Shown here piece after piece: positions 10,314 through 20,098 of a stretch of 45,760 nt of DNA. The translations under genes were made by a program, and so were the position numbers. Source of the stretch: Deltaproteobacteria bacterium (GTDB lineage Bacteria > Desulfobacterota > DSM-4660 > Desulfatiglandales > HGW-15); assembly GCA_016930795.1 (NCBI GenBank), contig JAFGFY010000157.1, forward strand, positions 1 to 45,760, read 5' to 3'. Numbering within the stretch: the first letter of the stretch is position 1; each line of letters starts with the position of its first letter. Under the pieces are notes generated by a model. The model ran no database searches and had not been told where the DNA came from. It saw only the letters and a list, made by a program, of their open reading frames with translations.

Positions 10314-11051
10314 TTGCCTGACCCTATTCTAAATTTTAAGCAGATAGCAAAGGTTCAATTGATGGTTTCTCACAAGCCCCACTATCACGGTCACAGAAAA
10401 AGGCTTCGTGAACGGTTCCTAAAAGGCGGTTTTTCCGGGATGACCGACCATGAAGTTGTGGAACTCTTGCTGACTCTGGCTATTCCCCGTAGTGATGTAA
10501 AGGAACGCGCAAAGGCCCTTCTAGCCCATTTCGGAAACCTAAAGGGAATTCTTGATGCACCCCTAAAAGAGCTCAGCACTATCCCTGGAATCGGTTCCGT
10601 TGCCCCCACAGCTTTTCGCATCCTACGTGAGGCAGCTAACCTATACCTCCAACAAAAAGCGGAAGATGAAATCTCTCTGGCATCCCCAGAATTGCTTTAT
10701 GACTTCTGGCGCTCGCGTTTGGGTGGGCTCAAGGATGAGGTATTTGAGGTTGCCTATCTTGACTCGGGTTACAAACTCCTAAGAGACGGTGTAGAACGAT
10801 TAGAAGAAGGCACCGTCGATCGGGCCAATATTTACCCGCGCCGAATGGTTGAGGCTGCTTTGCAGCGCGGAGCCGCCGCCCTGGTGCTGGCCCATAACCA
10901 CCCCAACGGTGATGAACAACCCAGCGAGCAGGATAAACTTACAACGCGCGCTCTTGTTCTTGCGGCCGAAACGATACAATTGAAGATCGTAGATCATCTT
11001 ATTGTATCAACTACCAATGTGTTCAGCTTTCGGAAGGCGGGGTTGATATGA
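10314..11051 (+). CDS. radC: RadC-family JAB/MPN-domain protein (accessory, first gene of defence-like operon)
   Basis: 245 aa; HGHRKRLRERF, helix-hairpin-helix IPGIGSV, JAMM motif HNHPNGDEQPSEQD. The track starts at TTG; ATG at 10362 is an alternative start. Confidence 0.9.
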   Translation: MPDPILNFKQIAKVQLMVSHKPHYHGHRKRLRERFLKGGFSGMTDHEVVELLLTLAIPRSDVKERAKALLAHFGNLKGILDAPLKELSTIPGIGSVAPTAFRILREAANLYLQQKAEDEISLASPELLYDFWRSRLGGLKDEVFEVAYLDSGYKLLRDGVERLEEGTVDRANIYPRRMVEAALQRGAAALVLAHNHPNGDEQPSEQDKLTTRALVLAAETIQLKIVDHLIVSTTNVFSFRKAGLI

Positions 11052-17296: not shown

Positions 17297-20098
17297 ATGG
17301 CCAAAGCCGTTATCGCATATGATAAGGACCTTCCCGATATTCCCGGGCGCCTGCCGTGGTTGAGGCCCGACGCCCACCTTGTCAAAGACGCTACCGCTGA
17401 AACCGGCTGGCGTGTCAAACCCGGTCGTCGGGAAAGCAGCCTTTTGCTGGTGCCCAAGATTCGCATAAATGTGGATGCCTGGCGGAAACAGGGATATCCC
17501 GGAGCCTCCGAGGTGACCCGGCGGCTTCTCGAATATTGGTTCGAAGAAGATCATGACGTGCCAGGCTTCGGCACGCCTTTTCGCTACTACTTCTGTCAGC
17601 GCGAAGCCATGGAAACGCTGGCCTGGCTAGTTGAGATAGCAGGTAAAAGAGATACCAGGGATCTGATCCAATCCTACGCCGAGGTGTATAAAAAAGACCT
17701 CTTTTCCGACAACATCGTTTTTCAGACCACCATGGACGGCCGGCGCCAGATCGTCCGCTATGTGCCGGAGTTGGACAAAGAGGGGACGCAGGACCTTCCT
17801 CCCGACAACCTTGGCCGCTTTGCCTTCAAGATGGCCACCGGATCTGGCAAGACCTGGGTGATGGCCATGGCTATAGTCTGGTCTCACTTCCATCGGAAAA
17901 TGGTTCATAGCTCAGCCCTTTCCACCAACTTTCTTGTGGTTGCGCCTAACGTGATCGTCTACCAGCGCCTGGAAAAGGATTTCGGCGCCAACAGGGTTTT
18001 TTATCAGATCCCCTTGATCCCACCGGAGTGGCGCGGCATGTTCAGCCAGAAGGTCATCCTGCGCGGAGAGGCCACCGAGCCTGATCCTTCGGGCAACCTT
18101 TTTTTGACCAACATTCACCAGCTCTACGAATCCCGCGATCAGGCCTGGACGCCTCAGAACGCTGTGGAAACCCTGCTCGGCAAAAAGCCTGCCAAGGACC
18201 TGGCCTCCTCCGGCCAGCGATCAATGCTTGAGCGGGTCAAATCGCTTATGGATCTGGTTGTTCTTAACGACGAGGCCCATCACGTCCACGATGAGGACCT
18301 GGCCTGGAGCCAGTCCCTTTTGGCCATCCATCGCGCCCTGCCTCAGGGACTGTCCCTCTGGCTCGATTTTTCCGCTACCCCCAAGGACCAGAACGGCATG
18401 TATTACCCATGGACCGTTTGCGACTATCCCCTGGCCCAGGCCGTGGAGGACCGCATAGTCAAGGCGCCTTTGATTGTTACCAAAGAAGACGATCCCAAAC
18501 AGCCTACCCTGGACCCGGACCAGATCACCAAGGAAAACGTTGCCGAAAAATACGGTTATTGGCTGCGGGCTGCTGTGCAGCGCTGGCGGGAACACTATAA
18601 AGTCTATAAAAAACTCGGCCAAAGGCCGGTGCTGTTCATTATGGCCGAAAAAAATGTCTATGCCGATGCTCTGGGTGAATATCTTTGGAAAACCAAGGAG
18701 TTCGGTCTGCGTGAGTCCGAGGTTCTGGTGATCCATACCGACAGCGCAGGCGAGATAACCAAAAAGGACCTGGAAAAGGCCCGCGAGGCGGCCCGGGACA
18801 TCGACAAGGCCGACAGCCGCATCAAGGCTATCGTCAGCGTCATGATGCTGCGGGAAGGCTGGGACGTTCGCAACGTTTCGGTGGTCCTGGGCCTGCGCCC
18901 CTTTACCGCCAAGGCCGAGATCCTGCCCGAACAGGTCATCGGCCGGGGTCTGCGCCTGATGACCCAAATCGGGCCGGACAAAACCCAGACCCTCGAGGTA
19001 CTGGGTACCCGCAACCTGCTCAAAGTTGTTCGCGACCAGCTTGAAGCCGAAGGCGTGGGTGTGGCCACTGCCAAGACTGATCCACCCAGGCCGGTGATCA
19101 TCGAGCCGGTCCAGGAGCGCCTGGAATACGATATCAACGTACCCATAACTAAGCCGAGGTTGGTTCATGATGTTCGCAAGATCGCAGAGTTGAACATCGA
19201 AACCCTGGAAGCCATATACGAACAAGAAGAGCTGGCTGAGCCGTTCCGGCTCAGCCTGTTGAAATTTAAGTTCGCCACCACCCAAACTGAGGTGCACCAG
19301 GCAGACATCGGCGCCGGAGAGCTACCGCAAGGCCATGAGTTGATCTCCTCTATCACAAACAAAGTCATCGACCGCGCCAAGCTGCCCAACCGTTTTGCCG
19401 AACTATATCCCATTGTTCGAGACTATATGGCTAAACGCTGTTTTGGCCAGATCGTGGATCTGGAGGGGGAAGTGCTACGTTCGCACTTGGCACGACTTGA
19501 ACTCCAAGAGGGGATCGCCAAGTACCTGGCGCGGAAAATCGCCGAGCTGACCCTCGAACGCCGCGCCATCGAGTTCGACAAGGCGGACTTCACGCTTTCC
19601 CAAACCAAACCCTTTAGCTGGCGGCGGAACCTTCCACCCCTATCAGCCGATAAAACGGTCTTCAACTACGTAGCCACCTACAACGATTTTGAACGCAGTT
19701 TCGCCGAGTTCCTTGATCGCCGGGCGGAAGACGTGTTACGTTTTGCTTCTCTCGGCACCACCGAACAGGGCGAGTCGGGAACCCAGTTCCGGGTAGATTA
19801 CATAAAGCCCAGCGGCGCCATTGGTTTTTACCACCCGGATTGGGTGGTCGTTCAACACACGAATGATGGAGAGGTGAACTGGATCATCGAAACCAAGGGC
19901 CGCGTCTGGGAAGGCACCCGCGCAAAAGACGATGCCATACGCTCCTGGTGTCGACGCGTTTCCGAAGAGACAGGTGTTCAGTGGCGCTATACGCGTATCA
20001 ACCAAAAAGATGTAGACTTATCCAAAGCGAGTTCACTTGCCGGTTTGATGGCCACCGTACAAAAACAAGTCCCATCGATCTTGTATCCCGAGGATTGA
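17297..20098 (+). CDS. Type III restriction Res-like DEAD/DEAH helicase with C-terminal nuclease motif
   Basis: 933 aa; FKMATGSGKTWVM, VVLNDEAHHVHDED, LDFSATP, VSVMMLREGWDVRNV, EQVIGRGLRLM; C-terminal HPDWVV...WIIETKGR (D...ExK). Confidence 0.93.
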   Translation: MAKAVIAYDKDLPDIPGRLPWLRPDAHLVKDATAETGWRVKPGRRESSLLLVPKIRINVDAWRKQGYPGASEVTRRLLEYWFEEDHDVPGFGTPFRYYFCQREAMETLAWLVEIAGKRDTRDLIQSYAEVYKKDLFSDNIVFQTTMDGRRQIVRYVPELDKEGTQDLPPDNLGRFAFKMATGSGKTWVMAMAIVWSHFHRKMVHSSALSTNFLVVAPNVIVYQRLEKDFGANRVFYQIPLIPPEWRGMFSQKVILRGEATEPDPSGNLFLTNIHQLYESRDQAWTPQNAVETLLGKKPAKDLASSGQRSMLERVKSLMDLVVLNDEAHHVHDEDLAWSQSLLAIHRALPQGLSLWLDFSATPKDQNGMYYPWTVCDYPLAQAVEDRIVKAPLIVTKEDDPKQPTLDPDQITKENVAEKYGYWLRAAVQRWREHYKVYKKLGQRPVLFIMAEKNVYADALGEYLWKTKEFGLRESEVLVIHTDSAGEITKKDLEKAREAARDIDKADSRIKAIVSVMMLREGWDVRNVSVVLGLRPFTAKAEILPEQVIGRGLRLMTQIGPDKTQTLEVLGTRNLLKVVRDQLEAEGVGVATAKTDPPRPVIIEPVQERLEYDINVPITKPRLVHDVRKIAELNIETLEAIYEQEELAEPFRLSLLKFKFATTQTEVHQADIGAGELPQGHELISSITNKVIDRAKLPNRFAELYPIVRDYMAKRCFGQIVDLEGEVLRSHLARLELQEGIAKYLARKIAELTLERRAIEFDKADFTLSQTKPFSWRRNLPPLSADKTVFNYVATYNDFERSFAEFLDRRAEDVLRFASLGTTEQGESGTQFRVDYIKPSGAIGFYHPDWVVVQHTNDGEVNWIIETKGRVWEGTRAKDDAIRSWCRRVSEETGVQWRYTRINQKDVDLSKASSLAGLMATVQKQVPSILYPED

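What the first reader, a model, noticed from the sequence alone, without database searches (positions are those of the whole stretch)
10314..20098. Five-gene composite defence-like operon: RadC - UvrD/Cas4-like nuclease - AlbA_2/HATPase - Mod - Res
Seen: five co-directional genes. The first three are joined by ATGA stop/start overlaps (11048, 13885), the next gap is 38 nt, and Mod-Res are 2 nt apart. All catalytic motifs look intact. Established: Mod/Res form type III R-M, and AlbA_2 proteins often accompany R-M. Inference: RadC and an SF1 helicase-nuclease in the same transcription unit suggest a multi-step system with end-processing beyond plain type III restriction. I do not recognise this exact five-gene set as a named system.
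Basis: partly seen in the sequence, partly recalled or inferred. Interest (0 to 1): 0.85.

Follow-up and report, generated by a model that had tools for sequence, protein, structure and literature searches.

The report
RadC-linked helicase-nuclease restriction operon
This is a five-gene bacterial operon, probably for defence against phages or plasmids, that joins a type III-like DNA methylase and restriction enzyme to a DNA-degrading helicase and to an extra copy of RadC, a protein of unknown job; the core was noted in 2017, but the fixed RadC partner and the swappable middle gene appear to be undescribed.

Summary
In detail: five intact co-directional genes at 10314-20098 with the stated junctions. 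The core is not new. UvrD-Cas4 fusion helicase-nucleases beside type III Mod/Res, sometimes with a Schlafen-like ATPase, were described computationally in 2017 (PMC5704561); I found no name or experiment for them. I find that cassette on plasmids of three phyla with at least three kinds of Mod/Res pair. What seems new is a RadC-bearing lineage. In 10 of 11 loci whose helicase is at least 48% identical to this one, a RadC gene lies directly upstream, usually overlapping; 0 of 20 more distant cassettes have it. These RadCs form their own clade, sit beside a second chromosomal RadC in all five genomes checked, and their distances track those of helicase and Res (r = 0.95). The slot between helicase and Mod is swappable: empty, AlbA_2/HATPase, or a Tiamat (TmtA)-like ATPase. 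The exact five-gene set recurs in a second phylum (L246). Best reading: Mod marks self, Mod-Res cuts unmarked DNA, the helicase-nuclease degrades the ends, RadC assists, the slot gene regulates or adds a defence. Function is inferred; nothing was tested experimentally. Verdict: new variant of a known kind.

The parts
10362..11051 (+). Operon-specific RadC (HhH-type N-terminus plus RadC/JAB domain with HNHP...S..D metal motif); a mechanical ORF begins at TTG 10314
   Evidence: Pfam PF04002 1e-31; found upstream in 10 of 11 lineage members; own clade 97/99 apart from the chromosomal RadC copies
11048..13888 (+). UvrD-Cas4-type SF1 helicase fused to a PD-(D/E)XK nuclease with four Fe-S-type cysteines
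   Evidence: Pfam UvrD-helicase 3e-61, PDDEXK_1 3e-23, Cas_Cas4 2.5e-5; invariant catalytic and cysteine positions in distant relatives; PcrA/UvrD and AddA are solved relatives
13885..15315 (+). Slot gene: SLFN_AlbA_2 + HATPase_c_4 + Fic-like_C winged-helix protein (476 aa)
   Evidence: Pfam; same slot holds a 32% identical AlbA_2 in L246, a TmtA-like protein in L117, L201 and L119, and nothing in four other loci
15354..17294 (+). Mod: beta-type N6-adenine DNA methylase, type III-like
   Evidence: PF01555 2e-39; PADLOC MTase_III 4e-109; EcoP15I Mod is the top solved relative by sequence and by fold
15954..16313 (+). Presumed target recognition domain of Mod (residues 201-320)
   Evidence: Identity to relatives falls to 21-35% here against 47-85% elsewhere in Mod
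17297..20098 (+). Res: SF2 helicase with C-terminal PD...ExK nuclease motif
   Evidence: PF04851 4e-16; NCBIfam BPTD_3080 restriction endonuclease 2e-84, below its cut-off; motifs conserved in 7 relatives

Best explanation
The operon is a methylation-gated DNA restriction system against phages or plasmids. Mod methylates adenine in a short site to mark self. Mod and Res together detect unmethylated sites and cut, as type III enzymes do. The UvrD-Cas4 helicase-nuclease loads on the new ends, unwinds and degrades the invader so that the cut cannot be rejoined. The operon-specific RadC, translationally coupled to the helicase, acts as a metal-dependent DNA or nucleotide processing partner of that helicase. 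The slot gene (AlbA_2/HATPase here) is a regulator, a sensor or an add-on defence. Shown: gene content, intact motifs, recurring order, co-inheritance of RadC with helicase and Res, a variable recognition domain, an exchangeable slot. Inferred: every biochemical step and the biological role.
For: Same gene order in loci of two phyla, with RadC in 10 of 11; RadC, helicase and Res distances correlate at r = 0.95-0.96; helicase next to Mod/Res in 9 of 11 annotated plasmid loci read, with at least three kinds of Mod/Res; catalytic residues intact; Mod resembles EcoP15I Mod; hypervariable recognition region typical of R-M arms races; a TmtA-like defence protein uses the slot in relatives; the 2017 survey proposed a defence role for the core.
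Against: No functional data. RadC is missing from the distant cassettes and from L118, so it is not needed by all forms. Mod is frameshifted in L117 and G229, which could be assembly error or decay. Res has no solved relative by sequence and its nuclease domain is called by motif. A few helicase relatives stand without Mod/Res.
Confidence: 0.55

Rival explanations
1. Self-protection module: the R-M pair does the defence alone, while the helicase-nuclease and RadC repair or reset breaks that the R-M pair makes in the host's own chromosome, lowering its cost.
For: UvrD, RecB/AddB-type nucleases and RadC are all linked with repair in the literature (PMC5704561; PMC5512222); the helicase matches PcrA, UvrD and AddA. 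Co-occurrence data fit this as well as the best explanation.
Against: Genomes already carry their own RadC, and the 2017 survey notes that most also carry RecB; the cassette travels on plasmids, where aggressive degradation of competitors is equally plausible. Not decisive.
Confidence: 0.25
2. Restriction without sequence-specific cutting, as in BREX or DISARM: methylation marks self, and Res plus the helicase-nuclease block or shred replicating invader DNA without site-specific cleavage.
For: Several helicases plus one methylase in one operon is the layout of such systems; the Res nuclease domain scores only marginally.
Against: No BREX or DISARM components were hit; Res keeps an invariant P-D...E-x-K motif; Mod is closest to type III Mod.
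Confidence: 0.1
3. Chance or loose neighbourhood: an ordinary type III R-M pair that happens to lie beside repair genes and a common regulator.
For: AlbA_2 proteins are very common (1595 homologues at E <= 1e-30 among the 8000 scored), and relatives of this Mod/Res exist without the helicase.
Against: The order is kept across two phyla with overlapping starts; RadC is a distinct clade co-inherited with helicase and Res.
Confidence: 0.05

Closest known systems
UvrD-Cas4 fusion plus type III Mod/Res loci (PMC5704561, 2017)
   Same: Same helicase-nuclease architecture, adjacent Mod and Res, optional Schlafen-like ATPase with HTH
   Different: The text and the figure legend of that paper do not mention RadC or a Sacsin/NOV_C (Tiamat-like) partner; no lineage structure or slot is described there
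Type III restriction-modification (EcoP15I type)
   Same: Mod with DPPF...FxGSG order and a central recognition region; Res with SF2 motor and C-terminal nuclease motif; Mod and Res adjacent
   Different: Extra helicase-nuclease, RadC and slot gene in the operon; cleavage behaviour unknown
Tiamat (TmtA)
   Same: In relatives L117 and L201 the slot protein matches one TmtA model over nearly its whole length (1510 and 1448 bits); L119 is a weaker match
   Different: Absent from the window, which carries AlbA_2/HATPase in that place
R-M operons with GHKL ATPases (MORC and paraMORC; PMC2292703)
   Same: A GHKL-type ATPase beside a methylase and an SF2 restriction helicase
   Different: Different ATPase families; no RadC; no UvrD-Cas4 protein described in the passages read
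Gabija GajB
   Same: UvrD-like helicase that PADLOC matches
   Different: No GajA nuclease here; the helicase carries its own Fe-S nuclease domain

Membership tests
UvrD-Cas4 / type III Mod-Res loci (PMC5704561) | UvrD helicase fused to a Cas4-like pfam12705 nuclease with conserved cysteines | tested here: met
UvrD-Cas4 / type III Mod-Res loci (PMC5704561) | Adjacent co-directional Mod and Res genes | tested here: met
UvrD-Cas4 / type III Mod-Res loci (PMC5704561) | Role in defence | not testable with these tools
   Proposed, not shown, in the 2017 paper; needs phage or plasmid challenge
Type III R-M | Beta-class m6A methylase (Mod) related to EcoP15I Mod, with a variable recognition region | tested here: met
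Type III R-M | Res subunit with SF2 ATPase and PD-(D/E)XK nuclease | tested here: inconclusive
   ResIII domain and motifs present, but RE_endonuc below cut-off, no solved relative by sequence, and the low-confidence model gives generic SF2 hits
Type III R-M | One-strand methylation of an asymmetric site; cleavage needing two inverted sites | not testable with these tools
   Needs methylome and purified enzyme
RadC-bearing lineage (proposed here) | RadC directly upstream of the helicase-nuclease | tested here: met
   10 of 11 loci at 48% or more helicase identity, 0 of 20 more distant cassettes
Chromosomal housekeeping RadC | The operon copy is the genome's ordinary RadC | tested here: not met
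   A second RadC exists in all five genomes and falls in a different clade
Tiamat (TmtA) | Large HATPase protein matching TmtA models | tested here: not met
   No TmtA hit among the window proteins; met in relatives L117 and L201
Gabija | GajA OLD-type nuclease next to GajB | tested here: not met
   No GajA match in the operon
DISARM or BREX | DrmA/DrmB or PglX/PglZ/BrxL components | tested here: not met
   No such match listed for the operon proteins (for helicase and Mod only the best 25 families were shown)

The most novel reading that the evidence does not exclude
RadC is an obligate working part of an immune system: an operon-specific RadC that acts with an Fe-S helicase-nuclease downstream of methylation-gated cleavage. 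This would give the enigmatic RadC family a testable role, within a modular platform whose central slot accepts other defence genes, including Tiamat-like ones.
Probability: 0.35. Interest if true: 0.75.

Novelty: new variant of a known kind. Interest (0 to 1): 0.5.

Why it matters
RadC is widespread in bacteria and its function is unsettled. A second RadC, co-inherited and probably co-translated with a helicase-nuclease inside a restriction operon, is a small defined setting in which to find it. The exchangeable slot also shows one defence gene nested inside another system's operon, which affects how defence systems are counted and annotated.

Tried and rejected
Housekeeping radC with an island inserted behind it: rejected, since every genome checked has a second RadC and the operon copies form one clade. 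AlbA_2 as a core part: rejected, since the slot is empty or different in relatives. Gabija, DISARM and BREX: not met. The one genome-contig scan used generic UvrD patterns and returned mostly ordinary UvrD. Empty-site test: failed; the flanking MurJ gene had a close match in only one family member, on a contig whose neighbouring genes differ, and another flanking gene did not help. Flanking inverted repeat as a mobile-element end: not shared by seven relatives. AlphaFold models of Mod and Res are weak (mean pLDDT 56 and 53) and were used only as support for family assignment. A sample of 300 genomes of the phylum of L112 gave no hit at the strict cut-off; 399 genomes of the phylum of L073 gave one distant-type locus without RadC.

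Full report
Observation. The five ORFs are present and intact at the stated coordinates, with the stated overlaps and gaps. Domain assignments are firm for RadC, UvrD plus PD-(D/E)XK, AlbA_2 plus HATPase_c_4 plus Fic-like_C, and the N6 methylase; the Res nuclease rests on a conserved motif. RadC probably starts at ATG 10362. The flanking genes scanned look like ordinary chromosomal genes (UvrA, RACo, a hydrolase, a phosphoglycerate dehydrogenase-like gene, a DNA polymerase III subunit, a methionyl-tRNA synthetase), so the operon sits in a chromosomal setting within a 4.2 Mb draft genome.

The core is a known, mobile cassette. The helicase has full-length relatives (mostly 31-37% identity) on plasmids. 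Of 11 annotated plasmid loci read, nine have a methylase and a Res gene directly after the helicase or after one or two small genes: Phaeobacter, Blastomonas, Tunicatimonas, Vibrio, Enterococcus, Priestia, Nitrosomonas, Spirosoma and Bacillus cereus. Annamia (a cyanobacterium) and Halomicrobium (an archaeon) lack them. One annotated phage genome carries helicase, a small gene, a methylase and a large gene in that order. The partners differ strongly: against the window, most plasmid Mods are 26-29% and Res 19-21% identical, and the Priestia pair is larger and more distant. The helicase-nuclease has thus kept company with at least three kinds of R-M pair. PMC5704561 (2017) described this association, including Schlafen-like ATPases, and proposed a defence role. 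I found no later experimental paper, but the library lacks most subscription journals.

A RadC-bearing lineage. Loci were grouped by helicase identity, not by RadC. Those at 48% or more identity to the window are: window, L117, L118, L119, G129 (L020), G229 (L203), G300 (L201), G274 (L202), G980 (L246), G999 (L247) and G879 (L248). The last three come from a sample of the phylum of a Bryobacterales genome (Acidobacteriota); none of its genomes had appeared in the sample of the window's own phylum, so I infer a different phylum. RadC lies directly upstream in ten; in G274 it is broken, and L118 has none. None of 20 more distant cassettes has a RadC-like stretch (tblastn; Fisher p = 2.5e-7, treating loci as independent, which they are not strictly). 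All five genomes checked carry another RadC elsewhere. The operon copies fall in one clade with 97/99 support, together with one long-branched chromosomal RadC from G139 whose place is unsure. Distances among RadC, helicase and Res correlate at r = 0.95-0.96 over 8-9 loci.

A swappable slot. Between helicase and Mod, relatives have nothing (G129, G229, G999, G879), an AlbA_2/HATPase protein (window, G980; only 32% identical to each other while their core genes are 62-79% identical), or a 1081-1510 aa Sacsin-HATPase/NOV_C protein (L117, G300, L119) that PADLOC calls TmtA (Tiamat), over nearly full length in two of the three. Window and L117 share RadC, helicase, Mod and Res at 63-80% identity with wholly different slot genes. 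The window's exact five-gene set recurs in G980. AlbA_2 proteins also sit between Mod and Res in helicase-less relatives such as L023.

Mechanism. Mod is type III-like, EcoP15I Mod being its top solved relative, with a hypervariable stretch at residues 201-320, which I take as the recognition domain. Res has SF2 motifs and a conserved PD...ExK. The most economical reading is methylation-gated cleavage followed by degradation of the ends by the helicase-nuclease. RadC's part is inferred only from gene overlap and co-inheritance; PMC5512222 argues from context that RadC domains process nucleic acids or nucleotides. The main rival is that helicase and RadC repair self-inflicted breaks; the data here do not separate the two.

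Novelty and limits. This is a new variant of a known, unnamed kind. New relative to what I could search: a fixed RadC in one lineage, and a slot with AlbA_2 or Tiamat-like occupants. No function has been shown. Sampling is modest (11 loci), Mod is frameshifted in L117 and G229, and the structure models are weak.

Noticed in passing
window 9639-9655 and 20276-20292: A 17-nt inverted repeat (one mismatch) brackets the whole operon. With up to one mismatch the motif occurs only twice in the 4.2 Mb genome, both here; 0 of 60 shuffles matched it, but seven relatives lack an equivalent.
   Followed up: partly
window 15029-15076: A 12-bp tandem repeat encodes the GEVTGEVTGEVTGEV stretch of the AlbA_2 protein.
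   Followed up: no
L250 10287-13562 and 767-2536: A distant-type cassette without RadC is flanked by a divergent TmtA-like gene and by a HATPase_c_3 gene, so GHKL ATPases also neighbour the distant type.
   Followed up: partly
L037 8262-12490; L133 4368-8616: Helicase relatives (32% identity) are followed by an RNase_T exonuclease-domain protein instead of Mod/Res.
   Followed up: no
L203 10062-11962; L117 17329-19203: Mod reading frames are broken while neighbouring genes are intact; assembly error or decay.
   Followed up: no
L119 16162-17597; L202 2998-4219: HTH plus Peptidase_M78 proteins, toxin-antitoxin-like or regulatory, lie inside or just upstream of the operon.
   Followed up: no
L032 7770-9907 and 19338-21538: On the Tunicatimonas plasmid the cassette sits between a phosphoribosyltransferase-DprA pair and a multiubiquitin/ThiF cluster, a likely defence island.
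   Followed up: no
L035 12902-19070: The Priestia plasmid has a much larger Mod (985 aa) and Res (1069 aa), a third kind of R-M partner for this helicase.
   Followed up: no
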